Below the pieces are notes generated by a model, which saw nothing but the letters and a program-made list of their open reading frames with translations, had not been told where the DNA came from and did no database searches. Source: Branchiostoma floridae (taxonomy: Eukaryota; Chordata; Leptocardii; Amphioxiformes; Branchiostomatidae). From it: DNA of 64,000 nt. Shown in pieces: positions 281 through 39,600 of this stretch (position 1 is the first letter of the stretch; each line of letters starts with the position of its first letter). The DNA lies in NCBI RefSeq assembly GCF_000003815.2, contig NC_049981.1:14112217-14176216 (forward strand), in the 5' to 3' direction. The translations under genes and the position numbers were made by a program.

Positions 281-334
281 GGACCGCCAGGGTACACAGG
301 CGAGAAGGGGGACCCTGGACAGCCGGGAATGATG
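281..334 (+). CDS. COL4A2-like: Collagen IV exon e1 (Gly-X-Y)
   Basis: 54 nt, phase 0, [18 protein letters not shown], acceptor caacag and donor gtaagt. It is the first exon seen; 1-280 holds no exon that I can support and is read as intron. Confidence 0.93.
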
Positions 335-3300
335 GTAAGTCAATGGTTTTTGCATTCCAATTGTTCATCCAACCATTGCGAAGCACCTAATTGTTTAGAG
401 ATGTCACTATGACTTACCCCAACTTTTTCACGCTCACGTGTCTAGTTAAGGTCAGCATCTGTATTTGAATAGTCTCTAGTTAAGGGATATCAATTTGTCA
501 CATGTATAACTCTACCACGGGTAATTATAACTTTTCAAGTCCACAAACCTACAATTAGCCTTCGGGCGTGTTGAAAGAATTGAACTGAATACTTTGATAG
601 AACAACAGAAACTGGACTAAATGTAAGCAGCTTGCATTGATGAATATATCCTGTGCAATGTTACGCTAAATCTATGTATTTTTCACCAATTACAGGGTCT
701 TTCAGGACGGCAGGGTCCGATGGGTCCAAAAGGTCCGAAAGGTCCACCGGTGAGTGTCCGCATCCCAACTCCGTTAAACAACAGTATATATTGAAATAGA
801 CACATTGTACGGTACAGTACTAGTAGGGCCGTTTAATTGCACACCCTATTTGCCAGCGTATTTCGTGCAATTATCCGGGTAATGCAGCAATGCGAAGTTA
901 TCCAGCTGGACCGCATCGGTTTGGGTTTGGGGGATTTAGTGCATTCAACAGAAGTGCGCGGTAACCCGTTTTGCATTTAACTGGCTTCTACTGTATAAAC
1001 TACCTTGTGTAAAGAAAACCCCGTTACATATAACATGGTTGCACAAGTAGATGGTATTGTTGACACTGATAGAAAGCTTTTGTTCATAGGGAAGACAAGG
1101 TGACGATGGCTTGCCAGGTCTTCAAGGACTTCCAGGATTGAAGGTATCTAAAATCTTTGGGGCATTTCCTCCTCTTGTGCTTTTCTAACAACATGTACCA
1201 GTCAGCATTAGGTTTAGCACATATGTATGGTGTATTTAGCATTGCCTGTTTAACGGCACATTTTTCCCATAGGGACACAAAGGTGACAGTGGAACACCTG
1301 GCTTTCCTGGACTCAAGGGGCATAGGGTACGTTTTCGCTTTAACCTCAGAAAAGAAATCTATTGCTCACCGCTTTCATTCTTGACTTACAAATATGCATA
1401 GATGATAAGGCAAGATAGATCAGTGATGTAATGATCATCAGCTGATATTATGAAATGCTACTGATGTCTGCTGAATGTATGTTATTTTGTGTGGCACGAC
1501 AGGGTTTTCCCGGACAAAATGGCCGTCCTGGCGACGACGGAAAATCTGGTTCCCCGGTGAGTGCTACTGCTTGCTCCTTGAAAGTATGAAATCACTTTAC
1601 TTTTCTTGTATATGATCAGGTTATGTAAGAACAAGACAAGCAGATTCGCCTTTGCTCTGAAATGTAACTTTAAGTTCATGACAAATACCTTATCTTCTAT
1701 CCATATCCAAATAGGGCAGACCAGGGGACATGGGGCCACCTGGCCTACCCGGGAAACAAGTAAGTATCTTCCCACGTGGAACGCCATGTTCGCATTTTCG
1801 GTCTTTTATAGGACAACATCAGCATATATATACAATCTTTAGCAATTTTGAGTTAAGGACAATCTTGCAGGAATTGAACTTTCTTGTAATGAAACTCACA
1901 TTGCTAAGATATCGCCCGATAGAAATACAAATTACATTTTGGAACTAAATTCTTTTCTTTCTTTTGTCAGGGTTTTCCAGGAGCCAAAGGCCATGCCGGC
2001 ACACCGGGCCCAGCCGGTCCTGCAGTAAGGCCATACTTTATTTGATTAAGTGATGCTTCTTTGCATATTCTGATTGTATGAATGATCGAAAGCAGCCATT
2101 CTGAGGCACTAGCAACATACTCAGCGGGGTGCAGTAACGAGTAATAAAATGCACTTTGCATTTGGTATATGGCCAGCAATTGCAACCGATCTATCATTAT
2201 GATTGCTTGTTTGCTGGACGATACATGTAGACATCCATGTATAGTTGAAAACCCAAGAAGATCTGAACTGCAACACTAAGCAGATGTAAACAAACCAAAC
2301 CATATGTGCATAGTGTATCAATACGAAGTATTGGTTTTAAATGTAGGCAGTTTTGTGACGTCTGATGAATTTCATTGTAGGGTGTTCCTGGACAGCGTGG
2401 CCAACGAGGAGAGCCTGGACTGAAGGTAAATATATATATACATACCACCCTGGTATCTACTTCATCGATCATCAATTTACATGTATTTAGACCAGATGTG
2501 TGACACAATCAATACCATGAACTCCGGAACCATTCTGGTGAATTTTCCGGTGCTGAGTTATCATCTATGGAAATTAAACGTAACAATAGTATTTCATGTG
2601 AAGTATTGAAAGATTTAGGTCCTCGTACTCGTTTTTTCCTATGATACTCGTCTTTAACATACAACAAGAAGATTCAACGACAATGAGATGATAAGATTGC
2701 TAGATATCTGCCTGTCTTGATATGCAGGTGTTTACAACAGTGTCGTTCTTTCCCAGGGTCCACCAGGTCCTGGAGGATTGCCGGGATACCCGGGACCACC
2801 GGGTGAGAAGGTGTCTCACAACATCAGTACTTAAGCTTCTAGTTAACTCTGTCTCACTTCTGTTTGTGCCTTAGGCTATTCCATCTCTAATGTATGTTCA
2901 AAGATGAAAGCATATTCATAAGACATAGGGGAATATGATATAATGACCCTCTGACTGACAAAACTCCATTCTTGGTGAAGAGTCTTGTCCCAGAATATGA
3001 AAATTAACAAATAGAAACGAAGCAATTTTTAGAGAAATTATCATTTTAGCGTGCATGTCTGTATATATTTGTAAATGTCTATCATTTGGAAGAATTCTAC
3101 GTTTACACTGAACTGAGATTTCCAGTATCTAACTTAATAACCTGCCTAGAATGACGTTTGCACTAAAATGTGAAATATCATTGCATGGAATTAGTTCTAG
3201 AATAGCTTAGAAATTTTACGCCAGTAAGTTCATTTAAAGCATGCAAGCAAGGGTCTGCATGATTTATTGCCATAAAATGACAATCTGTAAATAACATGGC

Positions 3301-6300
3301 TCACGTGTGTGTGTGTGTGTGTGTTCCTAGGCAGTACGTTTGTTTGAATGACTTGAACAGTACTTTAACTGACTACTTATCTAAATGGTCAAAGACGTTA
3401 CCACAAGCTTCTTTTTTTCTGTGTGTCTGTAGGGTCTAGATGGTAAAAAGGGTGACCGAGGTTACTCCGGGACTCCAGGGAAGGCTGGTCCGCCAGGCCC
3501 CGCGGGGCGCCCGGGAGGTCCAGGATCCGCGGTAAGTTAACGTTAGCTCCCCTGTTACTTGCCAGCTTCAACATAGTGTTTGTAGCCACATAGTCATGAA
3601 ACACGACAAACAATAGGACATTATGGATGTATCCAGCTTCCCTAATTTCTCAGGACAAGTGTGACATTAGAAATGGGTCAAATGTTACTGGAAACCTATA
3701 TCGCCCCCCGTCCCGATAGAAATTTAGTACGCATTGACTGTAGTTCAGTTGTAGCTAAGATATAGTACTAACGTCTACAAAACAATGACCCAAACACTGA
3801 GAAGCAGATACTGTACATCATTTTGTTTGATTTGCATCTGCATTATATTTCCCTTCCGTACAGGGGATACCAGGACAAGATGGAAAAGACGGAGAGAAAG
3901 GACAAGCCGTATGTATCTTCCTCCTCAATATGACTTTCCATAACTAAAGATTGTATATATACTTCAGGATGACAAAAAGTAGCTCAACGTCAGTCACGGA
4001 TTTCCCTTTAACAATTACCTTTCTGTAAGGTTGCACAGAATTAGCTGTTAGAATGTGCTGTGTCCTATTGCCGTCTGAAATGTGTAGTGCGACCCATCTT
4101 AGACGTCTACCAACTATTCACTGATATTTGATTGATTATCGCATTTGTTTAGTCAGTTGACTTGCATTTCGGACATGCTTTTTGTTTTGTTCTATAGGGT
4201 CACAAGGGACCGCCTGGCTTCATGGGGCCCATAGGTCCAGCAGGTCCACCGGTTGGTATGAGAGAAACTTTTGGAATTTAGAATTCCACATCAGTTGTTT
4301 TTGACATGTCTATTGCAGTTCACCTACATGTAAACATGTTGTAGCTTACTTGTTATTCACATGTCAAGCGAGTATCTGAATAGGTTTTATGAATGAATGG
4401 TTGACCTTTGTTGCTCGACAATTGTACAGGTATAGCAACGCCTACATACAGATACTAAACTACATACAGATACAGTGCAACAAAAATTCATCAATAACAT
4501 TATAAGGGTTACAGCACATTTATGTATGGGTGATTTGGTCTCGCATTTGGAATAATATACAAATGTACGAGACTTATTCCTTAATGAAGATCAGAATTTT
4601 TCATACGAATGCCACTTGATGTGCTTGTACAGCAGAAATTAAACTTGCAATTAATGTAAGCTTTTGATGAACTTTTTAGCATCTTTTAGCATTGTTTACT
4701 TAATCAACGTTGGGAAATTATTAGCGCATGTTATATCCGTCAATATGATAGACTAGACTTTAGTGACATATATTAATTTGTAGACACTTCTTTTTTGTAA
4801 AGGGCCCTTCTGGAGAAAGAGGTACACCAGGAGCTCCGGGTAGACCGGTGAGTTTTATCATATTCCTCGGAAATGTTAGATACTCCAATATCATCATACT
4901 GAACTAGCTCACAGTTTTCAGATTTTTATCCAGTCAACGTCAATCTTTAATCGATATGAACTACTCTTAGTTTTCCTTTTGGAACTGTACATTGTTTAAC
5001 TTTTCGTACAAGACAAGACAGGGCAGTGTTGGTAGGATGTTGTTGGGATTTGTACGCTATTTCCGTACACAACGTGAAGCTTTTACTTATAAGCTTTCAA
5101 TCAGTTCTCAAAACCTTGTCAAGCTGTAATGACCCGGATCGCATATGTCACTTGACCTGGACATACAAAATCTTCACACTGTTGATTATCGTCGTAGATG
5201 GACTTTCATTCCAGCTGATAAGACATCATAGAGTTCAATTTTGATATTCAATGTTGATATGATCCATATGTTGACAGGGCGAACCGGGAAATTCTGGCAG
5301 AGCCGGGTATCCTGGGTTAAAGGTACGTTCATTCTCTCCATCCTTCCCTCATTCAATTATGTTACTAAATTGTTAGTTTATTTTATTAGAACATAACATC
5401 CTTTTTGTCATCATCCCTGATTTATAACATTGCTGAACATCCATATGGTATCGACACATGCACCAATTGTAGTCTCTACCAGACTCCGGATAGCTGGAAA
5501 TCGTAGAAATGGAACAAATAGAGAGGAATATAACCGNNNNNNNNNNNNNNNNNNNNNNNNNNNNNNNNNNNNNNNNNNNNNNNNNNNNNNNNNNNNNNNN
5601 NNNNNNNNNNNNNNNNNNNNNNNNNNNNNNNNNNNNTGTTCCCTGGCCGGTTATATTCCTCTGGCCGGCTTACTCCTCTATTTGTTCCATTTCTACGATT
5701 TTTCCAGCGATCCGGAGTCTGGTAGAGACTACACCAATTGACCAACCCTGATTTTTAAACGATTATTTTCCATGAAACAGGGAGAATCTGGACCTCCTGG
5801 AGATCCAGGTAGGGGGCGTTACTCATCTCACTGGTCTTCTGGATATTTTCTCAAATGTCTTCCCTCATCTAACAATTGTATCTTACTGCATTGTAGTAAC
5901 ACTACTACATAGTTGCATGGAGGCCATTATGTTAATACTGCAGCTTCACTGTAATAACTGGTGCTTATCTGTCTGACAGGAATGATGGGGAGACCGGGAA
6001 AGTCCCTCAGAGGACCCGAGGGTCCGCCGGGACCACCAGGTGATGCAGCAATCTGTTTATACAAGGACGAGGTCAAGGATGACCAGAGATAATTTTTCAA
6101 GATTGTTTTCGACTCGTTTTACACACCCAACATCACAAATTGTCGTAGTAGATGTGTACTTGATGTATATAATGACATAGAGTGCAGCAGCAATTTGTTA
6201 TCAGAAATACAGTTGACGAGGATTGTTTTCTATTCACCACTTTATCTTTCTGAAATGCTTTCTTGTGTGTTTGATACAGGTCCACCAGGATTGGGGCTTG

Positions 6301-9300
6301 AGGGACCTCAGGGACTACCAGGTTCCATTTCACTTCCTTACTACCTTCTTGATATGTGCTGAAGCCATGCAGTGTATCGGGTTTGATTTATTCAACAGAT
6401 TTTCATGCTGAACGTTGGTATTGATTCTCTGATTCCTAGTTAACTTGCGATTGTTGAATGATATATATTTTGTAAATAATGAACTTAATATCTTGCTGAA
6501 TTTCAGGACCCCCTGGACAGGTTAAGACTCTGAAGGGCCCCCCTGGTCCACCTGGACCACCTGGTTAGTACATGGTTAATATGTTTTCATGTTTATTTGT
6601 CTATTTCTTTACTTGTTCTATTTCCAATGCAAAGTAACGCCATAAGGTGTAGAAGCCTAACAAGAAAACCTGATTGATTTTACCAACAGGAGGTAGAGGG
6701 CCGTCGGGAGGTCCGGGGGCACTCGGTGAACCAGGTAAGGTTAACGTCACATTTACAAACCGAGCTGTTCGTGCAAACGAAAAATAGTAATGTATACGTA
6801 AAGATATACACAAATATTGCCCAATACTATTCTCTTTACGTCTTTAGTAGTTTGGTGTCTTTTATACAGACAAAAAAGAAATGTGACGTAGGCCTCATCA
6901 AGAATGATAAGTTTGTTTCCTAGACATAGCCAATGGAATAACTGTAAATGCTGCTACATACGCTGATGATCATTATCATTTTCTTTTTTTTCGTATGATT
7001 ATTAAGGCATTTCGTCCATCTTTCAGAACTTTGCTTAATCTATCACTGCAGACTAAGATTTACTAAAACGCCCGAATGGCTAACATGATATTGGCTGCAG
7101 AAAAGTTGTTCAATATTCTGTACGAATCAACAGGAAGACCTGGTGTGGGACTCCCTGGTGGACCGGGACCGAAGGGAGAGCGGGGTTAGTGATGTCTTCT
7201 TTTTCTTATTTGTTTAGATTTTCTTTGTTGAAAACAAATCCATTTAAATGTCTTCATCTGTCAAAGTACATGAACTATAGAATCAAATGCTTTGGGCTGA
7301 ATCAGGTCAGACGATGGCGGATGTGAATAGTTTTATTTTTCTCTACGCAGGTTCTCCTGGTATTGGAGAAATTGGACCAGTGGGCCCAGAGGGTATGACT
7401 TTTTTTCTTTACTTTATTTTTGTTACATCAAAGATAAAACTTAATTTCACATCAATGATTTTGTCAACAGGCTATTCAATTCAATTGCGAAATATTACTG
7501 TGTGTTACTTTTATTTATGTAGATGAATCAGATCAATGATTGATTTTTTCTATATTTGCCAGCTTTGCTACGTACTTGTTAACGTTGAGTATTGAGTTAC
7601 TTGCCTGTTGAACATTATATACTCCCTGAAATCACACCGTCAGAGTTGATATCTATGAACCAACTTCCTGTTAGGTCCCAGCGGTAGACCAGGAGAGCCA
7701 GGAGAACCCGGACAGAGAGGTAAGACGGTTGGAACCGTTTAGATGATTGTGCCATCTACCGTTCTTGCTTAAAAACCCTATTCAGACCGGGCTATTTTGG
7801 TCATCCCTGGACCGGGGGGGGGGGGGGGCTTTTGAGGCCCTCCACTTCTAAGTCCTCTAACTCATGAACGACGTGCCGTAGGGCCACCGAATTTTTAGGA
7901 CATGATATCGACATAATATCTGACAAGTATATGACGTTTGACGTTAAAATGATAAAATGACGTCATGCACATCTAAGATACTAGTTAGGCTCCGCCATAT
8001 TATATCCACTACCTTGAATTTTTAAAAGTCCTTTTTTTTGCAAGAAATAATCACAAAGGGCAATGGGAATAGACTAAATTCATTCATTTAGATGGTTTTT
8101 GATGAAAAAATACCAGGTAGTTGCAAATTTTAAGGGATAATTAGCTTGTTATTCTTGATCTGGCCATACGGTCCGCCATCTTGGATTTTGGGCTGATGAC
8201 GTCATCAAATTAGCATAATTTCTGCATATATAATTATGAAAGATATGTTAAATAATATAAGATTTTATTTATGTAACAAAATAGCAGTAATATAGCAAAT
8301 AAATGTGAAAAATACATTGTTAGAACCAAAAATAGTGATTTTGGGCAAAACTGCCTGTCAGCAAACGGTTGCCATGGCAACACGAAAAAATGGAAAATTT
8401 GTCAAACTTCGTAAAATTGTTGCCAACAATATTTTAGGAAAACTCACCAAATTTGGTGGCTTTAGCGTAAGGCGTTCTGGCGTTATAGGACATCGAAGTT
8501 GGCGCGGGCCTCAAAAGCCCCCCCCCCCCCCGGTCTGAATAGGGTTAAAGTTCTGACAAGTGAACATAATTCTGTTCCAAGATAGTAGCAGAAATGTATG
8601 ACGACCAAGTAAGAGAGTACATAAGTGATACGTTGTATGCTTGCACTGTACCAAAACCCAGCAAGCTAGTCATTTTAAAGTTAGATATTTTGAACTTTCT
8701 CCTGACTAATTACGGTATGCCATTTGTTTTCTGTTCCAGGATCGCCAGGCCCTCCAGGAGCGTCAGGATTACCAGGAGCCAAGGGAGAAAGTGGTGCGGC
8801 TTTAGATATTTTTGTTCCTTTTGGGTGGGGTTTATGTTTGAATGTGTTCATCAACAGCACTATCACTTGTAACCATCTTATTCCTATTTTGATCAGCAAC
8901 AAGGCTTCAAAATGTCGCCCTTTGAAGCCTTCGAACTAGAAAGAAAAGAGAACAGCACCTTTGATTTGTAACGTTACTTACTAGTGTATATCCGTATTGT
9001 ATTATCCGAAACGTCCAGTTACTTCCACTTTCGAATTATTTATCTATTCTATCAAGAAAGCCCAGGGTGACAACTTTCAAAAATAAGATGTTTTGATGCC
9101 CCTTCTTTATGCTACTCTGCAGTTTCTGGTTATACTTAATGTTCTGGATGTTCTACCTAAGTCGTCTTGATAGTCGTATTGCCTTGTTTCTATAGGGTTG
9201 GCCGGTGTGGGGCTCCCTGGACCACCTGGAGCAAGAGGTTTGTCAAAACTATTCTCAGTAACTTCTTACGAGTTATGTTCTTACACAGGTGATAGCCCTG

Positions 9301-12300
9301 TAATGATAGTGACCAGAACAGATTGACAGCAAAGTTTCAATTGATGTTTCGTTGAAAATTATGCACCACCCGTACTTGATAAACGGTACCTTTGATTCAT
9401 TATACAGTTGTTGCATTTTGAGTATGCTTATTGTGTATAAATGTTTTAAATGTATATCCTTTGATGCCATATCAGGACCGATCGGCCCAGCTGGAGTTGG
9501 TATCAAGGGAGACAGGGGACTGGACGGTCTGATGGGACCTCAGGGTTAGTACTGACCATGCGCCTACAAGGCTGCTTATGTAAAGTATGTGCTTGAAGAT
9601 GTGGTGAATTTCCTCAGTGCAAACCAGGATACCGTTTTCTGGTACTCTACAGGATAATATTACATTCTGATTGATTATAATCCCTACATGGAATAACGTA
9701 TCTGACCAGAAGTGATGACATTCTTTGCTTTCTTTAACGTAACGTATGTTTCAATCTGTCGTTTATTCTAGTATAACATCAGCCTTATGCTTCTAAATAT
9801 GTTAAGAATACCCATTTTGGGGCCGATCTGCACTGCTCTCATTGAGTGTTACATTACCTTTCGATGTCTTTAATATTCTTTTTAAATAACCGGAGATTGG
9901 TGTCTTTCCTCAATAGATGATACCACAGCCACATAGACACATGATATCTTCTCTTTCATATTTAGGGCCACCCGGCTTTGGTCAGAAGGGTGAGCGTGGA
10001 GCTCCTGGATTCCGTGGACCTCGTGGTGATTCAGGTAGGGTTTCTTATTTCAAATTGTTTCATCGGCAAAACAACAATAAGACTATCCTGATTGGTGTGT
10101 GTGTACATTCTGGCCTTTCGTCAACAAGAACGCAAAGTGTGAATCATAAAAGTGGACTTTGTTGGCGAGGCTATATGAAGATTAAAACTAATGGATAGTA
10201 AATCAACAAACGATACCAAGGAGGTAAATCCACTATAATCAAAAGCATCATGCTCATACGCTATAATGATTTTCGTTACTAGGTATCCCTGGATCCCAAG
10301 GTCGCCAGGGTCCCCCTGGTGTCAGTCTGGGACTGTTGGCCCGTCATAGCCAGAACACAACGGTACCCAATTGTCCACCCGGCATGAGACAGCTCTGGTC
10401 AGGCTTCAGTCTGCTCCACGTTGAAGGCAACGAGAGAGCACACAAACAGGATCTGGGTAAGCCTAGACGTTTTTCTAAGTCTTGTTAAACAAATATGGGC
10501 AAACGACGACGCTGTCTGGCTAGAACGTCACCAATGTACGTTCTACGCGCTCACATCTTAATCTTGTCTTAATGTTTATTTCTTTGTTTGGTTGTTTGAA
10601 TTACATAGCCGTTAAACCACCTTATGGCATAACACACCAAGTTTGTACGGTAGAGTTCAAGCTGCATATCCGGACATATCTATTTGATCCACTCACACTT
10701 TTATTTTCATGTTATCCCGTACAGGACGTGCTGGGTCCTGCCTCCCCAGGTTCAGTACAATACCCTTCATGTCCTGTGAGCCTGACGACACCTGTAACTA
10801 TGCGAGCAGAGATGACAAGACTTACTGGCTGTCTACAGTGGAGACCAGCGCGGAGAAGCCACTAATACCTGTCAGGGGTAGGTAGTTGTGCATATTTTCA
10901 GAAGCAAACAGAACATCATTTTAAGATCTATCCAATAAAAACTAGTATAAAACATGTCACCATAAGAAGCACTTTAAATCCACTAACCAACATTCAACCG
11001 TTGACAATGCCCAAGATTTATTTATTTATTAGCAAATATGACAAAGTACATTACGCAGACTTTCAGGCAGTGTTGCTGATATTGGAGTGTCTACAAGTAG
11101 GAACAAACAAATACACAGGCATGGCAATATAATGTCACACTTCACTAGCATTAAGAGGGGTGATCAGTAAGTTCTCGGTCTCGCCCAGAAATATCAATCA
11201 CAACTCAATTTTCGGGGCACATCTTCGTACTTTGAAGTCTTTTATTACTATCCTCCAAATGTTAAATTATTGCAGTCATTACTTTCCAGGCAACATCTTT
11301 TTGAAAATCAGTAGGTAAGTGGCGAGAAAAACAAGCCTTTAGGGTAAACTGTGATCAGGCGTGTGTGGGTCGAGTTCCCCATGCCTTAAATTCTTCGAAG
11401 ACATCGTTAAAATGTTTGATAATGAGTCCCTTCGTATTTCAAGTAGAAAGAAGTGGGTGTCTGACTTCCAGCAGAGCAAGTTGATCCACACACCTCAGGT
11501 CGCAGCTCAAGTGCCCATGTTTTTTTCCTTCTCTCTTATCTACCTTTACAGGGTGTCGCCTGCAAAGTAATGATCATAATAACTTGCATTTTGGTACACA
11601 TTCCTAAAAGACTTGACATATACGTGTAGAAATCTGAGTTGTGCTTATTATTTCTGGTTGAGGCCGAGAACATATTGATCACCCCTCGTAACAAGAACTC
11701 TATAACTTATCTAACAAGTTAATTCAAAATCAGTCTACAATCTATTTGGGTTGAGGTACCGGAATTTCATTATAGTCATATATGCCATTCTAACAAGAAA
11801 AAAAATGTGCTTGTATCTACGTATTAAGTACATGCTAATGTTTACTTAACAGCGTTCACTTTATATAGGTCTGGAGATTAAGAAATTTGTAAGCAGGTGC
11901 TCCGTTTGTCAGACGCCTGAGGTGGTTCTAGCCCTGCACAGCCTGGACGCCGATTTTTACCCTGACTGTCCTCCGGGCTACATCAGCCTCTGGACCGGCT
12001 ACAGCTTCCTCATGGTAAGGTGGAACCCTCGTGAAGAATCCAGAGAGATGGGTATCCTGACTTGAGATACTAGAGTGCCATTCTGTCCTCGGAAATACAG
12101 TTTCCTCCATCATACGATGGATCATTGAAGGTCTCTACGAAACCGTAACAATTGGTGTTTCTCTAAGGACACACTAAGGATAATAATCATTACTTTGATC
12201 CCTTCGTGACTTTCTTGAAAAAGATTAAGTTCATATTTTTCCGTTGTTCTAATTTCTGCATAATGATCTTGTCCAATGAAATTTGAAGGAAAAAAAGGAA

Positions 12301-14269
12301 TAGAACGTCAGAATTGATCAACGATGCGGCCAAGCTACGGTTCAAAAGCCAATGGATAAAAGACAACACGAACACCTAAGCTATGGCACATTTGTATCTC
12401 AAGAAAGCTTACCAATCTCCACCTTCTCTTCTTCCCTGTCTGTAACACACACTTGCATTTGTTTCCAACCCACAATGTAGGGCTGGAAATTAAGAAGTTC
12501 GTGAGCAGGTGCTCGGTGTGCCAGACCCCAGAGGTCATTTTGGCACTGCACAGCTTGGACGCAAGCGCTATTCCTGACTGCCCTGACGGTTATATCAGCC
12601 TATGGACAGGATACAGCTTTTTAATGGTGCGTTATGCAACAGCAAAAATGTTGCAAAGTTTTTGAACTTTTCATCCAGCTCAAATAAAATCACTCACCAT
12701 ATACCATTTTCAGTGTATTAACCTCATGCGTCAAACGTTGAAGAACAAATTTATCGAGAAGAGTAATATAGGGTGGCCCAGTTTGATTAGTGAAGCCGCA
12801 TTAATTGTACTACTTCTAACTACTTGAAAAAGAAACATGTTTTACCTCAATTGACTGCTTGCAAATTGGCCATACCTATGTATTTTTGACCGTTCCATCG
12901 GTCTTTATATAGTATTACATCAGCTTACCCACTCAATTCTGACATGCGTTAACGCTCCGGACACGTGATGTCATCGATCATGGGTACCAGGAAGTCGATA
13001 CCGCACATCGTCACGGTTTAGAGAGAGCAATGGAGACTGATCTGGTAGATGGCTGACCCCACCCCACCCCTGACGTCACGTTTCTGAACATTAACGCATG
13101 TCTGACACGAGTGAGTCAGATAGTCGATGAAGACTGATGAGAAGGTCTAAACTTATTTTCGTTGAGTTGGAACAAAATTTCAAGAATTTTACCATGCGAG
13201 CTCTCATCCACTGCAGACAATTAACACCATAGAGTGTAGTTTGCACAATTGAAACTTACTATGCTTTGAAGTTCTCCTGAACTCGGGATAGTAATAGGAG
13301 ATGAAAATAACCTCTGCTGAAGGGTTTACGAATATTGATGATTTACAGATAAATGGTATGCAAATCATAAATATTCGATTATGGAGATGTTTGGAAAATA
13401 CTTAAGAAAAGATAAGTCATGGAACTTGAAAATGTGCCATTGCACAAATTCGCAGATTTTAAGACCATGATGATTGGTCATACAAATATCAACAGAAAGT
13501 GAATCATTTTCATTAAGCTAAATGGAACAAGAACGAAACAAATCATTCGAGTTATTGTTCAATTATTCCAGCGTAAGACCAAATCGGACGGCTTTACACA
13601 GGGTGCAGACGCTAACCGCTTTCGATGCCACGTACTAGTAATTTGCCTGCCAAATTTTTCTAAATTGTCACATGCTAGCGCACTATTACTAATACAACAT
13701 CATAAATGTATGTGAATTGACACAACAGTTACTCAATTTCTGTCTAGCTATTTCTTTCTTTATTTTCTACACAATACGACTTCATGTCCTATAAGAGCGA
13801 CAGACTTACTCCTTCTGTTCATTTTGAATGTATACATGTAAGATTGATTGGATCGATCCTAGTCTGGTTATGCACTAGAAAGTGATAGGTTGTGCAGTGT
13901 GCACCACCCCACCCCCAGTCCACGCGTTTTCTGAGAAGAAAATTCGAACATTTATACCTGTCATTATTATATTGTATTGATTACGTTCCTTCACTCCACC
14001 ATCAGCACACAGCCGCTGGTGAAGGCGGTGGCCAGGAGCTGACCAGTCCCGGAAGTTGTCTTCAGTACTTCCGGCCCGTACCCTTCATCGAATGCCAAGG
14101 CTCCCTGGGAACGTGTGACATCATCGGCAACTCTTTAAGCTTCTGGTTAACGGATGTGCCTGAAGATGAAGTACAGCAGTTCCAGCGGCCTCAAGCACAG
14201 TCCGGAACCATATTTACCATGAGAAACCTCCTTAGTAAATGCCGTGTATGTATGGCTACAGATGTGTAA
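281..14269 (+). CDS. COL4A2-like: Collagen type IV alpha chain, alpha2-like, 3' part of gene (5' end outside window)
   Basis: Secreted basement-membrane collagen chain that trimerises through its C-terminal NC1 domain. Exons: 281-334, 696-749, 1090-1143, 1273-1326, 1503-1556, 1715-1759, 1971-2024, 2381-2425, 2757-2810, 3433-3531, 3864-3908, 4198-4251, 4803-4847, 5278-5322, 5781-5808, 5980-6039, 6280-6321, 6507-6563, 6690-6734, 7134-7184, 7351-7392, 7675-7719, 8740-8793, 9196-9237, 9476-9544, 9966-10034, 10283-10456, 10725-10877, then 11869-12014 or 12481-12626, then 14006-14269. All have AG/GT borders and join in frame to 698 residues: about 466 collagenous, with several short Gly-X-Y interruptions typical of type IV, and a 232-residue NC1 with 12 Cys. 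Known type IV chains are near 1,700 residues, so about 1,000 are missing to the left. NC1 motifs [19 protein letters not shown] and [10 protein letters not shown] resemble vertebrate alpha2 more than alpha1; this subgroup call is from remembered family sequence. Confidence 0.95.
696..749 (+). CDS. COL4A2-like: Collagen IV exon e2 (Gly-X-Y)
   Basis: 54 nt, phase 0, [18 protein letters not shown], acceptor ttacag, donor gtgagt. Confidence 0.93.
1090..1143 (+). CDS. COL4A2-like: Collagen IV exon e3 (Gly-X-Y)
   Basis: 54 nt, phase 0, [18 protein letters not shown], acceptor ttcatag, donor gtatct. Confidence 0.93.
1273..1326 (+). CDS. COL4A2-like: Collagen IV exon e4 (Gly-X-Y)
   Basis: 54 nt, phase 0, [18 protein letters not shown], acceptor cccatag, donor gtacgt. 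The intron before it is only 129 nt. Confidence 0.93.
1503..1556 (+). CDS. COL4A2-like: Collagen IV exon e5 (Gly-X-Y)
   Basis: 54 nt, phase 0, [18 protein letters not shown], acceptor cgacag, donor gtgagt. Confidence 0.93.
1715..1759 (+). CDS. COL4A2-like: Collagen IV exon e6 (Gly-X-Y)
   Basis: 45 nt, phase 0, [15 protein letters not shown], acceptor aaatag, donor gtaagt. Confidence 0.93.
1971..2024 (+). CDS. COL4A2-like: Collagen IV exon e7 (Gly-X-Y)
   Basis: 54 nt, phase 0, [18 protein letters not shown], acceptor after a strong pyrimidine tract (cttttgtcag), donor gtaagg. Confidence 0.93.
2381..2425 (+). CDS. COL4A2-like: Collagen IV exon e8 (Gly-X-Y)
   Basis: 45 nt, phase 0, [15 protein letters not shown], acceptor attgtag, donor gtaaat. 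Confidence 0.93.
2757..2810 (+). CDS. COL4A2-like: Collagen IV exon e9 (Gly-X-Y)
   Basis: 54 nt, phase 0, [18 protein letters not shown], acceptor tttcccag, donor gtgtct. The following intron (2811-3432) carries a (GT)n run at 3304-3324. Confidence 0.93.
3433..3531 (+). CDS. COL4A2-like: Collagen IV exon e10 (Gly-X-Y, 99 nt)
   Basis: 33 codons, phase 0, starting [13 protein letters not shown] and ending GGPGSA with uninterrupted Gly every third residue. Its size equals a 54- plus a 45-nt exon, consistent with loss of an ancestral intron (inference). Donor gtaagt. Confidence 0.93.
3864..3908 (+). CDS. COL4A2-like: Collagen IV exon e11 (Gly-X-Y)
   Basis: 45 nt, phase 0, [15 protein letters not shown], acceptor gtacag, donor gtatgt. 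Confidence 0.92.
4198..4251 (+). CDS. COL4A2-like: Collagen IV exon e12 (Gly-X-Y)
   Basis: 54 nt, phase 0, [18 protein letters not shown], acceptor tctatag. The donor gttggt is weak, but it is the one that keeps the frame and the usual 54-nt size. The next intron holds a short LINE 3'-end remnant near 4405-4445 (ttgctcgacaattgtac). Confidence 0.9.
4803..4847 (+). CDS. COL4A2-like: Collagen IV exon e13 (Gly-X-Y)
   Basis: 45 nt, phase 0, [15 protein letters not shown], acceptor ttgtaaag, donor gtgagt. Confidence 0.92.
5278..5322 (+). CDS. COL4A2-like: Collagen IV exon e14 (Gly-X-Y, last phase-0 exon)
   Basis: 45 nt, phase 0, [15 protein letters not shown], acceptor ttgacag, donor gtacgt. The following intron contains the foldback element and the first N run. 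Confidence 0.92.
5470..5731. mobile_element. Foldback TIR element with a perfect 9-bp target duplication
   Basis: The left arm begins TAGTCTCTACCAGACTCCGG and its reverse complement closes the right arm at 5731. The arms match over about 65 bp on the left, with a short insertion in the right arm. The 9-mer CACCAATTG flanks both sides (5461-5469 and 5732-5740). The centre is an N run, probably because the hairpin or its copies could not be assembled. A 9-bp duplication with long arms fits Mutator-like (MULE) foldback elements; the family is not certain. Confidence 0.85.
5537..5636. other. Assembly gap, 100 Ns
   Basis: Exactly 100 Ns, the conventional size for a gap of unknown length, inside the foldback element. 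Confidence 0.98.
5781..5808 (+). CDS. COL4A2-like: Collagen IV exon e15 (phase-switching exon, 28 nt)
   Basis: Starts with a whole Gly codon and ends after the first base of one (GESGPPGDP plus G). This shifts all following introns to phase 1. Acceptor gaaacag, donor gtaggg. Confidence 0.9.
5980..6039 (+). CDS. COL4A2-like: Collagen IV exon e16 (Gly-X-Y with interruption)
   Basis: 60 nt, phase 1 to 1. Reads [26 protein letters not shown] is a short break in the repeat. Acceptor ctgacag, donor gtgatg. Confidence 0.9.
6280..6321 (+). CDS. COL4A2-like: Collagen IV exon e17 (Gly-X-Y with interruption)
   Basis: 42 nt, phase 1 to 1, [20 protein letters not shown] breaks the triplet register. The donor gttcca is weak but is frame-consistent. 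Confidence 0.88.
6507..6563 (+). CDS. COL4A2-like: Collagen IV exon e18 (Gly-X-Y with interruption)
   Basis: 57 nt, phase 1 to 1, [27 protein letters not shown] is an interruption. Acceptor tttcag, donor gttagt. Confidence 0.9.
6690..6734 (+). CDS. COL4A2-like: Collagen IV exon e19 (Gly-X-Y)
   Basis: 45 nt, phase 1 to 1, [15 protein letters not shown]. Acceptor ccaacag, donor gtaagg. Confidence 0.9.
7134..7184 (+). CDS. COL4A2-like: Collagen IV exon e20 (Gly-X-Y with interruption)
   Basis: 51 nt, phase 1 to 1, [23 protein letters not shown] is an interruption. Acceptor atcaacag, donor gttagt. Confidence 0.9.
7351..7392 (+). CDS. COL4A2-like: Collagen IV exon e21 (Gly-X-Y with interruption)
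   Basis: 42 nt, phase 1 to 1, [14 protein letters not shown]. Acceptor ctctacgcag, donor gtatga. Confidence 0.9.
7675..7719 (+). CDS. COL4A2-like: Collagen IV exon e22 (Gly-X-Y)
   Basis: 45 nt, phase 1 to 1, [15 protein letters not shown]. Acceptor cctgttag, donor gtaaga. The next intron is 1,020 nt, most of it a TIR element. Confidence 0.92.
7776..8544. mobile_element. Non-autonomous TIR element, piggyBac-like
   Basis: Terminal inverted repeats begin CCCTATTCAGACCGG on both ends. TTAA directly abuts the right end (8545-8548); on the left, TTAAAAA precedes the terminus. Subterminal homopolymers are inverted copies: G-run near 7804-7818 followed by cttttgaggccc, and gggcctcaaaag followed by a C-run near 8519-8531. 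There is no credible transposase ORF. A TTAA target and CCC terminus suggest a piggyBac-type MITE; the left end is degenerate. Confidence 0.75.
8740..8793 (+). CDS. COL4A2-like: Collagen IV exon e23 (Gly-X-Y)
   Basis: 54 nt, phase 1 to 1, [18 protein letters not shown]. Acceptor tgttccag, donor gtgcgg. Confidence 0.92.
9196..9237 (+). CDS. COL4A2-like: Collagen IV exon e24 (Gly-X-Y with interruption)
   Basis: 42 nt, phase 1 to 1, [20 protein letters not shown] matches the break in e20. Acceptor tctatag, donor gtttgt. Confidence 0.9.
9476..9544 (+). CDS. COL4A2-like: Collagen IV exon e25 (Gly-X-Y)
   Basis: 69 nt, phase 1 to 1. Begins [15 protein letters not shown] and continues [14 protein letters not shown] is an interruption. 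Acceptor atatcag, donor gttagt. Confidence 0.92.
9966..10034 (+). CDS. COL4A2-like: Collagen IV exon e26 (Gly-X-Y, contains RGDS)
   Basis: 69 nt, phase 1 to 1. Begins [12 protein letters not shown] and ends FRGPRGDS before a split Gly codon. The RGDS tetrapeptide could be an integrin recognition site, though within a triple helix RGD is often cryptic. Acceptor atatttag, donor gtaggg. Confidence 0.92.
10283..10456 (+). CDS. COL4A2-like: Collagen IV exon e27: end of triple helix and start of NC1
   Basis: 174 nt, phase 1 to 1. The last collagenous run is [15 protein letters not shown]1 follows from [18 protein letters not shown]. The exon holds NC1 Cys 1, the conserved LWSGFSLL strand and [14 protein letters not shown] is an N-glycosylation sequon next to the first Cys, a position where I do not recall one in human alpha1 or alpha2. 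Acceptor ttactag, donor gtaagc. Confidence 0.96.
10725..10877 (+). CDS. COL4A2-like: Collagen IV exon e28: NC1 subdomain 1
   Basis: 153 nt, phase 1 to 1. Contains [35 protein letters not shown] and the linker [13 protein letters not shown], with NC1 Cys 2-4. The Arg and Asp of SRDD match residues known to bind the chloride ring in vertebrate NC1 hexamers. In human chains the linker after YWLST carries the Met (Met93) used in the sulfilimine crosslink; no Met is seen here. Acceptor cgtacag, donor gtaggt. Confidence 0.96.
11153..11690. mobile_element. TIR element, probably Tc1/mariner-like MITE
   Basis: Imperfect inverted repeats of about 53 bp. The left arm starts GAGGGGTGATCAGTAAGTTC near 11155 and the right arm ends with its diverged complement near 11687. 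CG|TA at the right end and TTAA at the left suggest a TA target, but one terminal base differs. It lies in the intron before the duplicated NC1 exons. No intact transposase is visible. Confidence 0.6.
11869..12014 (+). CDS. COL4A2-like: Collagen IV exon e29A: NC1 centre, alternative copy A
   Basis: 146 nt, phase 1 in and phase 0 out. With the split Gly it encodes 49 residues: [13 protein letters not shown] (NC1 Cys 5-6), [10 protein letters not shown], the variable patch [10 protein letters not shown] (Cys 7) and [11 protein letters not shown]. It covers the end of NC1 subdomain 1 and the start of subdomain 2. The acceptor follows tttatatag; the donor gtaagg is strong. Copy B differs at five residues (V20I, D29S, F30A, Y31I, P36D, counted from the split Gly). 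One of the two is expected per mRNA. Confidence 0.95.
12481..12626 (+). CDS. COL4A2-like: Collagen IV exon e29B: NC1 centre, alternative copy B
   Basis: 146 nt, the same phases as copy A and 466 nt downstream of it. It reads [23 protein letters not shown], patch [21 protein letters not shown]. About 23 of 49 codons differ synonymously from copy A against 5 replacements, which shows an old duplicate held by purifying selection. The SAIP patch resembles vertebrate alpha1/alpha2 (IQIP, VSIP) more than DFYP does, so B may be nearer the ancestral form (inference). The acceptor is cacaatgtag; the donor gtgcgt is weaker than that of copy A. Confidence 0.95.
12627..14005 (+). other. Last collagen intron, no gene seen
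   Basis: 1,379 nt between exon copy B and the final exon. No further copy of the duplicated exon, no transposon ends and no convincing ORF were seen. If exon choice is regulated, control elements would be expected here and in 12015-12480. Confidence 0.6.
14006..14269 (+). CDS. COL4A2-like: Collagen IV final exon e30: NC1 subdomain 2 and stop
   Basis: 87 codons plus TAA, entering in phase 0 after accatcag. It carries [39 protein letters not shown] and [11 protein letters not shown], with NC1 Cys 8-12. In human chains a Lys about 11 residues before the penultimate Cys (Lys211) forms the sulfilimine crosslink. Here the matching stretch is [17 protein letters not shown], with Gln or Thr instead depending on the gap placement. 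Confidence 0.96.
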   Translation, partial: HTAAGEGGGQELTSPGSCLQYFRPVPFIECQGSLGTCDIIGNSLSFWLTDVPEDEVQQFQRPQAQSGTIFTMRNLLSKCRVCMATDV

Positions 14270-36600: not shown

Positions 36601-39600
36601 CACCAACAGTCGTATAACATCTCTTAGTTGAAGAGTTTCTTACGGATAAGATCCACAGAGGGAAAATTGAGTAGCGGGGCTATCTACTGTGACCAGGTCG
36701 TTAGCTTTCTTTTTCCTGGCTTCACGTAAATAATTTGTAAGAAACTCCGGACCTTTCTGTCGTTAAGACTCTTACGGCTTGTGAGCATGTATCTTTGAGG
36801 CCAATACGGGCCAATTATTTCCATCTAACAGTGTATCTGGAAACAAAGGCATAAGGTCCATAGAAGCCTTTTATCACCGTATTGTGTGTCGTAATTTTGC
36901 CCCCATCCCCACCCAGTCTTTAACTTTACTTTAATCTCATTTATTGCTTCTGCGTAGTTTGCAAGAGTGGCGAAAAGTTTGTATACAGTATATGGCCACT
37001 TTTAAGACCTGTGTGGCAAAAGTTAAGAACAAGCCCTCTCCGACTTTTAACATTTGAAAAGCTGCAGATACTAAATCCCCATTTGTCTTTGGTACTGTGT
37101 GTGTTGGGAGGGGGATGCAAATACTTTAAGCGTTGACTGGTAAAATAATGAGAGTCTTTAAGATCTTGCTGATCCTTGCTAATGTGGCGTCCACATATTG
37201 CATTACAAAATATACCATTGTTTTATACATTAGTGTAATTGTCTAGCCTGTATGTGTTTACACAATCTCTTGCTAGCTGGGGTTAAAGACGATATTGTGG
37301 GGTCGGCCGCTAGGAGCGCGATTTTAGTCAGGCTATGGGATTGTCGTGTTGTACAAGGTTGGAGAATGTTCTACTGACACTTGCTACTGAACACTGCGGC
37401 AGTGCTGACAAAGAATGGCACAGAACAAGCAGGCAACATAATTGAAACTTGTATAAAGAAGACGAAGTACACAAGAATAAACTAACCATTGCTCCCCCCC
37501 CCCCCTTTTTGCGATGATAAGGTACCTATTGGACTTAGTGACACGCAGCACACGCTACAACCTTCACACCCACATGTTTCAAGTATTATCCGTTGACGTG
37601 AAGCTCTTATAATGAGTTCTGGATAACCTTTCATATTTTCCACACAGCACCTGGTCCCTTCTGCGATATAGAATATATATGTTTATTGCAAGTTCTTGCC
37701 CGAGGGCTAATTGCAGGTACAAACAACATGTAAAATAAGGAAAAATACAAAGGTGCTAGGAACTACATTCTATGACTATGCTATGCTAGTGTACATTATA
37801 CTGGTTTTGTTGGGTTAGACTTCTTCTCTTTAGGCAGTGGAAGACGAATTTACCCACTTCTTTTATAATGTGTGGGTTCTTTGATTTTAATAGTAGGATT
37901 GATTTTTCATTGTCAGGAATAGTTGGAAAGTAAGCGTGTATTTTGGATACACTCATAAATAGTTGGTTTCTTATATCATCATAAAAAGAACAATTAGTGA
38001 TAAAATGACTCTCGTCTTCCACAGCATTTGAGGGGCAATATTTACAAATCCTCTCGGACACAGGTAGCTTCATATATCTCCCCTTTTCTATTTCCAGGGG
38101 GTGGGCACTAATTCTAATCTTACTGGTAGCTGAACGCTGCTCAAAGTCGCAAAGTTCGAGATATTTCTCTATACAATATTCGGTTTTAAATTTTCTGTAA
38201 AATCTAAGCTTGCCAGTATCGGCAGACAGATTATGGAAGAAAGTTTGAATATACATATCTGAAAACCTTGTCCTTAATAGATTGCATATATGTTAAGGAT
38301 CATAGTTAGTGCTATCACCATATAATAAGTATGAGTAGCCACAGTGATCGAAGATCTCCTTAACTCGCTGTAATAATGTCCGTCGACGACTATTTGTCAG
38401 AGATGTATGTTGTAATCGGAGAGCATCAACTTGCAGCGGGTGTGTATCGGAGTCTAGTTGTGTTAAGTGTGTCCAGAATTTTACAGTGCGCAGGGATATA
38501 TCTAAATCTAGTGGGAACCTTCCTAGTTCTGCTCTGGCTGCTACATTACTACTGTTCCTGTGCACACCAAGTACATTCTTGCAGAAGCGGTTATGGGAAT
38601 TTTCAATAGGTGAGGTGTCATTTATAGGGTCTTTACCCCAGATTTCACATCCATACAGAAGTATTGGTTTAATACAAGTGTCGAATATTCTTAGTAGGCA
38701 CTTCGGAGAGACAGACGAACGGAGTAGCGATTTGAGACTGAACATGGCCTTTCGTGCTCTGAGTGAGAGCTGTTTTTGTGCAAGAGAGAAACTGCCTGAT
38801 GCAGTAATATTCAAGCCCAAGTAGCAGTAGGACTGGACTATGTCAACTGTGTCTTGCCCAAAAGAGAATGTTTGTTTTGGGAATGATCGGCCAGATTTGT
38901 TGAAGATAATGACTTTTGTTTTCTTTAAATTGACTTGTAATTTCCATTTCGTACAAAAGTCGCTCAATCTATTCAGGGCAATTTGAAGTCCTTTATCGGA
39001 CTCAGAAAAAATAACAACATCATCTGCGTATAAGAGGCATGATACAAACAGGTTATGTAGGGAGGGTGGTGAGCATTCAGTATTATCAAGTACATGTACA
39101 AGGTCGTTTATGAACAGGTTAAAGAGTGTAGGGCTAAGGTTACAGCCTTGCCTGACACCCTTCTCGGTTGCAAATGATGGCGTTAAACCAGACGATGTTT
39201 TGACGCATGTCAGGGGTTTTGAGTACATACATTTAATAAGCTTATAGATATAAGGTGAAAGGAAATGCCTACCGTAATAGGATATTAATTAGTGTCCTAT
39301 CTAATGGGCCGAGCACAGTGTCACCCATTTTTGAAGGAAAAATAGACAAGAGAGACAAGAGGGTTTTTTTCACTGTTCTTCTCTTTTATTCGTCAACGTT
39401 TCAAAGAAGGAAAGAAAAAAGGATGTGTCAAGCTTCACACGACAGGTTACTTGTCCGCCGAGCTCCCACCAACCCACTCCTGCCAACTTGACACAGCAAC
39501 ATAAAATACAAGACAGAAAGTTCATACCAGTAGACTCCGACTACATGGGAGTAGGGGATTAAAAGCGCAGGTGTAGTTTTCCCCCCGTCGACCCTCGCCC

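What the first reader, a model, noticed from the sequence alone, without database searches (positions are those of the whole stretch)
11869..12626. Duplicated NC1 exon in a collagen IV gene: two alternative cores of the trimerisation domain
Two 146-nt exons with the same phases lie 466 nt apart. They encode the same 49-residue NC1 segment apart from five replacements, three of them adjacent (DFY versus SAI, next to NC1 Cys 7), while about 23 codons differ silently. This is an old duplication kept under selection, so both are probably used. The NC1 domain sets which chains trimerise; two versions would give two chain isoforms from one gene. Alternative exons are known in nematode let-2 collagen IV, but in the Gly-X-Y region; I know of none in NC1.
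Basis: partly seen in the sequence, partly recalled or inferred. Interest (0 to 1): 0.9.

Follow-up and report, generated by a model that had tools for sequence, protein, structure and literature searches.

The report
Alternative exons in lancelet collagen IV
A lancelet collagen IV-like gene carries two old, intact versions of one exon that swap a surface loop of its network-joining domain, and the gene next to it looks able to swap most of that domain; if RNA data confirm it, one gene could build several kinds of basement-membrane joint.

Summary
Exons A (11869-12014) and B (12481-12626) are both 146 nt with the same phases and AG/GT borders. Their 48-residue segments differ by 5 replacements, and 23 codons differ silently. 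Silent change is near saturation and the introns are unalignable: an old duplication kept under purifying selection. Using both or neither gives an early stop, so they should be mutually exclusive. Only A appears in the protein records I saw (Branchiostoma floridae, B. lanceolatum). RNA was not testable.

DFY/SAI and P/D align to alpha3(IV) residues 127-129 and 134, in the exposed EB (Goodpasture) loop, not the domain-swap hairpins, chloride or sulfilimine sites. A change of surface binding is likelier than a change of trimer partner. The gene is not the canonical COL4A pair (on contig C12) but an extra collagen IV-like chain lacking both sulfilimine residues.

Unexpectedly, a neighbouring gene 13 kb before the window has two first NC1 exons only 35 nt apart and five intact, phase-compatible 3' NC1 cassettes that would share them: up to ten NC1 domains. 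My searches of the held library showed no published case.

The parts
11869..12014 (+). Exon A: NC1 C-subdomain first half, loop [11 protein letters not shown] (derived form)
   Evidence: same five diagnostic residues in B. lanceolatum P0025
12481..12626 (+). Exon B: duplicate of exon A, loop [11 protein letters not shown] (consensus-like form)
12015..12480 (+). 466-nt intron between exons A and B
10725..10877 (+). Constant upstream exon: second half of NC1 N-subdomain (joins A or B in phase 1)
10283..10456 (+). Constant exon: end of triple helix and first half of NC1 N-subdomain
14006..14269 (+). Constant last exon: rest of NC1 C-subdomain and stop codon
   Evidence: the only copy found for this gene
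281..10034 (+). 26 Gly-X-Y exons of the same gene (54, 45 and 99 nt first, irregular ones later); further exons lie before the window
   Evidence: lengths of the first 14; upstream Gly-X-Y runs at C3:14111687 and 14111776

Best explanation
Exons A and B are a pair of mutually exclusive, tandemly duplicated exons in a lancelet collagen IV-like gene (called W here). Each transcript takes one of them (inferred), because both or neither shifts the frame (shown from sequence). The trimer-forming parts of NC1 stay the same and the EB surface loop at the apex of the NC1 hexamer changes: an aromatic, acidic DFY...P form or a small, aliphatic SAI...D form (position shown by alignment; effect inferred). 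The most likely use is two versions of the basement-membrane joint with different surface binding or stability, chosen by tissue or stage. B keeps the ancestral-like loop; A is the derived form and the one in the gene records I saw. The neighbouring paralogue U seems to carry the same idea further, with alternative N1 exons that vary the matching EA loop and five alternative 3' NC1 cassettes.
For: Intact exons, phases and splice dinucleotides. Near-saturated silent change with 43 of 48 residues kept; 0 of 20,000 neutral simulations match. Frame forces exclusivity: both gives a stop after 164 residues, neither after 113, counted from the exon at 10283. Exon A type with all five diagnostic residues kept in B. 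lanceolatum 'isoform X2', a cluster of 4 members. The residue before the loop Pro is I or V in 50 of 50 aligned relatives; B has I, A has Y. EB mapping; loop in the model. Of 16 clear exon-3 matches in the genome, only this gene has two about 0.6 kb apart; the nine loci outside C3 have one each in 10 kb. U array with splice-compatible cassettes.
Against: No RNA evidence at all. No protein with the exon B loop was seen: 0 of 143 fetched hold SAIP, 2 of 143 hold DFYP, though 90% clustering would hide it and the last search listed 120 of 232 hits. B has the weakest acceptor of the 31 in this gene model by a small leave-one-out matrix (A ranks 25 of 31); but the constant exons at 14006 and 10283 also rank low (30 and 28), so this says little. 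No sign of competing intron pairing (a crude test). Two relatives in the wider set also have Y before the Pro, so A's Tyr is not unique. Binding function of the loop in lancelets is inference from mammalian structures.
Confidence: 0.68

Rival explanations
1. One reading: the two exons change which chains trimerise, giving two chains with different partners from one gene.
For: NC1 directs chain selection and trimerisation (passage in PMC10694668). The exons lie in NC1.
Against: The five replacements correspond to alpha3 residues 119, 127-129 and 134 (my count on the alignment with the numbering). The motifs that the passages of PMC10694668, PMC6211539 and PMC13098435 name for swapping, chloride and cross-link (37-45, 66, 74-78, 93, 144-154, 186-189, 211) lie elsewhere. 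Four of the five are in the exposed EB loop. The last 13 residues of the exon, next to the SM1' hairpin, are identical.
Confidence: 0.12
2. Exon B is a dormant or rarely used relic, and A does all the work; B will prove unexpressed.
For: Only A appears in the records seen. B's acceptor scores lowest of 31.
Against: B keeps 43 of 48 residues, an open frame and splice dinucleotides while silent change is near saturation; a neutral exon would not. It also keeps the family consensus residue before the Pro.
Confidence: 0.12
3. B acts as a poison exon: inclusion of both exons triggers decay and tunes the amount of protein.
For: Inclusion of both shifts the frame and stops early.
Against: This would need no conservation of B's amino acids, yet they are conserved.
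Confidence: 0.06
4. Assembly or allelic duplication.
For: The older gene model P0001 does contain a near-identical repeated stretch of collagen exons, likely a haplotype error.
Against: A and B differ at 37 of 146 bases, with silent change near saturation and unalignable introns.
Confidence: 0.02

Closest known systems
Nematode collagen IV let-2 mutually exclusive exons (regulated by ASD-2)
   Same: Tandem alternative exons in a collagen IV gene. I saw only that let-2 is a splicing-reporter gene and the title of the ASD-2 paper in a reference list.
   Different: Recalled: the let-2 exons lie in the Gly-X-Y region. Here the exon is in NC1 and swaps the EB loop.
Tandem duplicated exon substitution (mutually exclusive exons) in general
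   Same: Homologous neighbouring exons of equal length and phase that cannot be used together.
   Different: None in collagen NC1 found in my searches; the human survey PMC5740500 does not contain the word collagen in its main text.
Drosophila PGRP-LC, pip and CG42235 alternative 3' variable regions
   Same: Tandem alternative 3' cassettes behind shared exons, as the neighbouring gene U appears to have (passages of PMC9013439).
   Different: Unrelated proteins; there competing RNA pairing is reported, here none was found by a crude test.
Goodpasture EB/EA loops of human alpha3(IV) and alpha5(IV) NC1
   Same: The same loop positions: W A/B varies EB, U N1a/N1b varies EA.
   Different: In vertebrates loop variety comes from separate genes, not from splicing (inferred).

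Membership tests
Collagen IV (NC1-bearing chain) | C4/NC1 domain match (PF01413) | tested here: met
Collagen IV (NC1-bearing chain) | Twelve NC1 cysteines | tested here: met
   12 in W_A and W_B
Collagen IV (NC1-bearing chain) | Sulfilimine residues Met93 and Lys211 | tested here: not met
   No Met or Lys at the aligned positions in W or in U as aligned (in U cassette 5 a Met stands nearby); the C12 pair has the MTMSM/PMMPV and TLKAG motifs. The residue numbers were placed by alignment to known motifs.
Canonical COL4A1/COL4A2 pair | Head-to-head gene pair | tested here: not met
   W and U lie in the same direction on C3. On C12 two NC1 ends point away from each other 84 kb apart, as in a head-to-head pair; the stretch between was not read
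Collagen IV (NC1-bearing chain) | N-terminal 7S domain | tested here: inconclusive
   5' end of W not determined; the first 60 lines of a search with N-terminal pieces of three other chains, themselves of doubtful N-terminus, showed almost only Gly-X-Y matches and stopped short of W
Spongin short-chain collagens | No HSQ motif, different cysteine set (PMC5395295 section 11) | tested here: not met
   First HSQ present (second reads HSL) and 12 collagen IV-type cysteines
Mutually exclusive exons | Tandem homologous exons, same phase and length | tested here: met
Mutually exclusive exons | Joint inclusion or skipping is not productive | tested here: met
Mutually exclusive exons | Transcripts with each exon alone | not testable with these tools
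   no RNA reads; only A in gene records seen

The most novel reading that the evidence does not exclude
Lancelets have a two-gene collagen IV-like cluster that assembles its NC1 domain by alternative splicing. W chooses between two EB loops. U chooses between two N1 exons (EA loop), which are too close together to be spliced to each other, and between five complete 3' NC1 cassettes, for up to ten NC1 domains. Without the sulfilimine residues, these chains would form a separate family of variable basement-membrane joints beside the canonical COL4A pair.
Probability: 0.5. Interest if true: 0.87.

Novelty: new variant of a known kind. Interest (0 to 1): 0.72.

Why it matters
Vertebrates vary collagen IV joints by having six chain genes. 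A lancelet that varies the same EA/EB loop positions by splicing would be a different solution to the same need. It would make the function of these loops testable, because the two W isoforms differ by so few residues. [quoted passage not shown] passage seen).

Tried and rejected
Competing intron pairing as the splicing mechanism: duplex energies between introns were no better than shuffles (i1-i2: 3 of 12 shuffles as low or lower; i2-i3: 11 of 12; i1-i3 not run), and no 10-14-mer was shared upstream of three or more of the five U cassettes; one search timed out. This is a crude test. U12-type splicing as the cause of exclusivity: both donors look like ordinary GT sites by eye. Steric exclusion for A/B: rejected, the intron is 466 nt. 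For U N1a/N1b the 35-nt gap fits steric exclusion (smallest of 30 introns in the W model is 126 nt). Spongin membership: rejected. Separate N1 exons between the U cassettes: searched at E up to 10 with six N1 queries; between the cassettes only the C1 exons' own resemblance, some reverse-strand matches over the same exons, and weak short hits appeared. Gly-X-Y exons between the cassettes: none by the rules, but the rule recovers only 17 of the 26 known window exons, so single short exons could be missed. Protein evidence for exon B: three searches gave 24 of 642, 5 of 457 and 232 of 683 candidates (120 rows listed in the last); of 143 distinct proteins fetched none carries SAIP. The U5 N2C1 rows are wrong because of a one-base slip in my join; the C1 and C2 rows and U1-U4 stand.

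Literature: I searched the held library for NC1 with mutually exclusive exons (0 papers), amphioxus collagen IV NC1 (1 paper), NC1 structure and Goodpasture epitopes, let-2 splicing (5), tandem exon duplication in amphioxus (15 of 216 listed), alternatively spliced collagen NC1 (15 of 53 listed), Branchiostoma collagen IV (20 of 626 listed), invertebrate NC1 splicing (8) and let-2/ASD-2 (8 of 12 listed). In these listings and the passages read I saw no report of alternative exons in NC1; most subscription papers are not held. Read as passages: PMC10694668, PMC6211539, PMC4395375, PMC4678570, PMC5395295 (section 11 in full), PMC13098435, PMC10746531, PMC9013439, PMC3771449, PMC8093946 (section 8 in full); PMC5740500 find only (no hit).

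Full report
WHAT IS THERE. The window is on contig C3 (14112217-14176216) of a 513-Mb genome and is Branchiostoma floridae, judged by a 100% NC1 match to a B. floridae UniRef entry (P0001) and by a contig length shared with B. floridae record P0036. The gene (W) runs on the + strand from before the window to 14269. I could place 26 Gly-X-Y exons, two NC1 N-subdomain exons, exons A and B, and one last exon, all internal borders AG/GT. The spliced NC1 is 232 residues with 12 cysteines in either form; its best single-chain matches among solved structures are alpha2(IV) NC1 domains.

THE TWO EXONS. A and B are 146 nt each, 466 nt apart, entered in phase 1 and left in phase 0. They share 109 of 146 bases; 23 codons (22 whole plus the split Gly codon) differ silently and 5 by replacement. 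pS is 0.77 and pN 0.095; 12 of 16 four-fold and 7 of 20 two-fold sites differ. The 100-nt intron flanks align no better than shuffled sequence (336 and 381 of 500 shuffles as good or better). Unselected simulation never kept as few as 5 amino-acid changes (0 of 20,000). This is an old duplication with purifying selection on the protein of both copies. Because 146 is not a multiple of 3, both exons together or neither give an early stop.

WHICH RESIDUES CHANGE. Both copies have one extra residue in the loop compared with mammalian chains. Anchored on the following Pro-x-Cys, DFY/SAI corresponds to TDI of human alpha3(IV), residues 127-129, and P/D to residue 134 (alignment; peptide numbering from PMC4395375). 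The fifth change, V/I, falls on residue 119. EB is 127-141. Structures describe EA and EB as surface loops in sheets I/I' flanking a crevice at the apex of the hexamer (PMC6211539; PMC8093946). The swapped beta6-beta7 hairpins, chloride motifs and Met93/Lys211 lie elsewhere. A model of the B. lanceolatum protein puts the DFY and P positions (329-331, 336) in a loop between strands 320-324 and 338-347, with block confidence 81 and 91; overall confidence is low, with the collagen part poorest (mean pLDDT 59.5). The residue just before the Pro is I or V in 50 of 50 aligned relatives (rows 3-52 of a 52-row alignment; I chose 52 of the 143 proteins fetched); in the wider set of 138 parsable proteins a few have other residues there, Tyr in two apart from the lancelet pair. 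B has I, A has Y. B is therefore ancestral-like and A derived.

CONSERVATION AND USE. A B. lanceolatum record named isoform X2 carries exon A with all five diagnostic residues and two other changes in 48. No protein with the B loop was seen among 143 fetched, but the database is clustered at 90% identity, which would merge A and B forms. B's acceptor scores lowest of the 31 in this gene model, though the constant exons at 14006 and 10283 also score low (30th and 28th). A may therefore be the default and B regulated or minor. No RNA data were available.

WHAT KIND OF GENE. The likely canonical lancelet COL4A pair is on C12: two NC1 ends pointing away from each other, with Met93 and Lys211 motifs. 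W lacks both residues and lies elsewhere. It is not a spongin: it has HSQ and the collagen IV cysteines. I call it an extra collagen IV-like chain. Its first 14 exons in the window are 54 nt (8), 45 nt (5) and 99 nt (1) long, a pattern that I recall from fibrillar collagen genes.

THE NEIGHBOURING GENE. The exon-3 peptide finds 16 clear places in the genome: A, B, five more on C3 in the same direction before the window, and nine elsewhere; three further weak hits (E 0.2-0.5) include an N-subdomain exon of W itself and look like N-subdomain exons. Reading the C3 stretch shows a second gene, U. Its Gly-X-Y runs reach about C3:14083244. Two alternative first NC1 exons follow, N1a 14084153-14084323 and N1b 14084359-14084526, only 35 nt apart. 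Then come five cassettes: 14086147-14086445 + 14086786-14087094; 14088890-14089188 + 14089365-14089691; 14091444-14091742 + 14092123-14092449; 14094604-14094902 + 14095079-14095408; and 14098061-14098181, 14098493-14098670 + 14098933-14099199 (the fifth joined by eye). Each has an open frame, an acceptor in the same phase and its own stop; a polyA-like hexamer lies within 600 nt after the stop in four of five (none after the fourth). No other N1 exon and no Gly-X-Y exon was found between the cassettes (the rule recovers 17 of 26 known window exons). So cassettes 2-5 can apparently be used only by splicing to the shared N1 exons, unless they are dead. They are unlikely to be dead: between cassettes pS is 0.58-0.95 and pN about 0.10-0.20 (U1-U4 for N2C1, all five for C1 and C2), and every cassette completes a 12-cysteine NC1. 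N1a and N1b differ in the EA loop (QLDVVPDC against QTDQIPNC) with pS 0.77 and pN 0.17. The C2 search shows five U copies and one W copy. As a control, the nine NC1 loci outside C3 have a single C1 exon each in 10 kb. One of them (L028, C17) has partial repeats of N1 and C2 pieces, one with a stop, and in another (L025) no N2 exon was detected.

HOW IT LIKELY WORKS. Shown: intact alternative exons, exclusivity by frame (W), loop position, selection. Inferred: exclusivity by spacing (U N1), regulated choice, and a change in what binds the apex of the NC1 joint rather than in trimer partners for W. In U the cassettes also vary N2 and C2, which hold swap-hairpin and interface segments, so there chain or hexamer selection could change. 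The lack of sulfilimine residues suggests joints without that cross-link. The splicing mechanism is unknown; no competing pairing was found.

VERDICT. The exon pair is real and old and very likely a mutually exclusive pair. The trimerisation reading is weak and the EB-loop reading better. The neighbouring array makes the locus more interesting than the original finding, but without RNA it stays a strong prediction.

Noticed in passing
Genome contig C3:14084153-14099199, 13-28 kb before the window (loci L013, L014): Neighbouring collagen IV-like gene U with two alternative N1 exons 35 nt apart and five intact alternative 3' NC1 cassettes.
   Followed up: yes
Window 10725-10877 and 14006-14269: The chain lacks Met93 and Lys211 needed for sulfilimine cross-links, as does the neighbouring gene U; the C12 pair has them.
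   Followed up: partly
Window 281-5322: The first 14 collagen exons here are 54, 45 and 99 nt in phase 0, like fibrillar collagen genes (recalled); later ones are irregular and phase 1. Gly-X-Y runs of gene U show 54, 45 and 99-nt lengths too.
   Followed up: partly
Window about 11155-11687 (intron before exon A): Insertion-like stretch whose two ends look like inverted repeats (gtgatcagtaagttctcgg at 11160 ... ccgagaacatattgatcac ending 11682), possibly a small DNA transposon.
   Followed up: no
Window 37786-39288, - strand: Reverse-transcriptase-like open frames by eye, probably a LINE element.
   Followed up: no
Locus L028 (C17:12601695-12611694): NC1 gene with partial tandem repeats of its N1 exon end (one with a stop) and of the start of its last exon.
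   Followed up: no
C18:11459398-11469397 and C18:11846404-11856403 (L023, L024): Two NC1 genes 387 kb apart with identical matched N1 peptide but different later exons; B. belcheri proteins P0010 and P0114 show the same. Gene conversion or shared N1 use.
   Followed up: no
P0001 (older B. floridae gene model): Begins with what looks by eye like a wrong-frame reading of U cassette 5 and repeats a run of collagen exons; looks like a fused model on an assembly with a haplotype repeat.
   Followed up: partly
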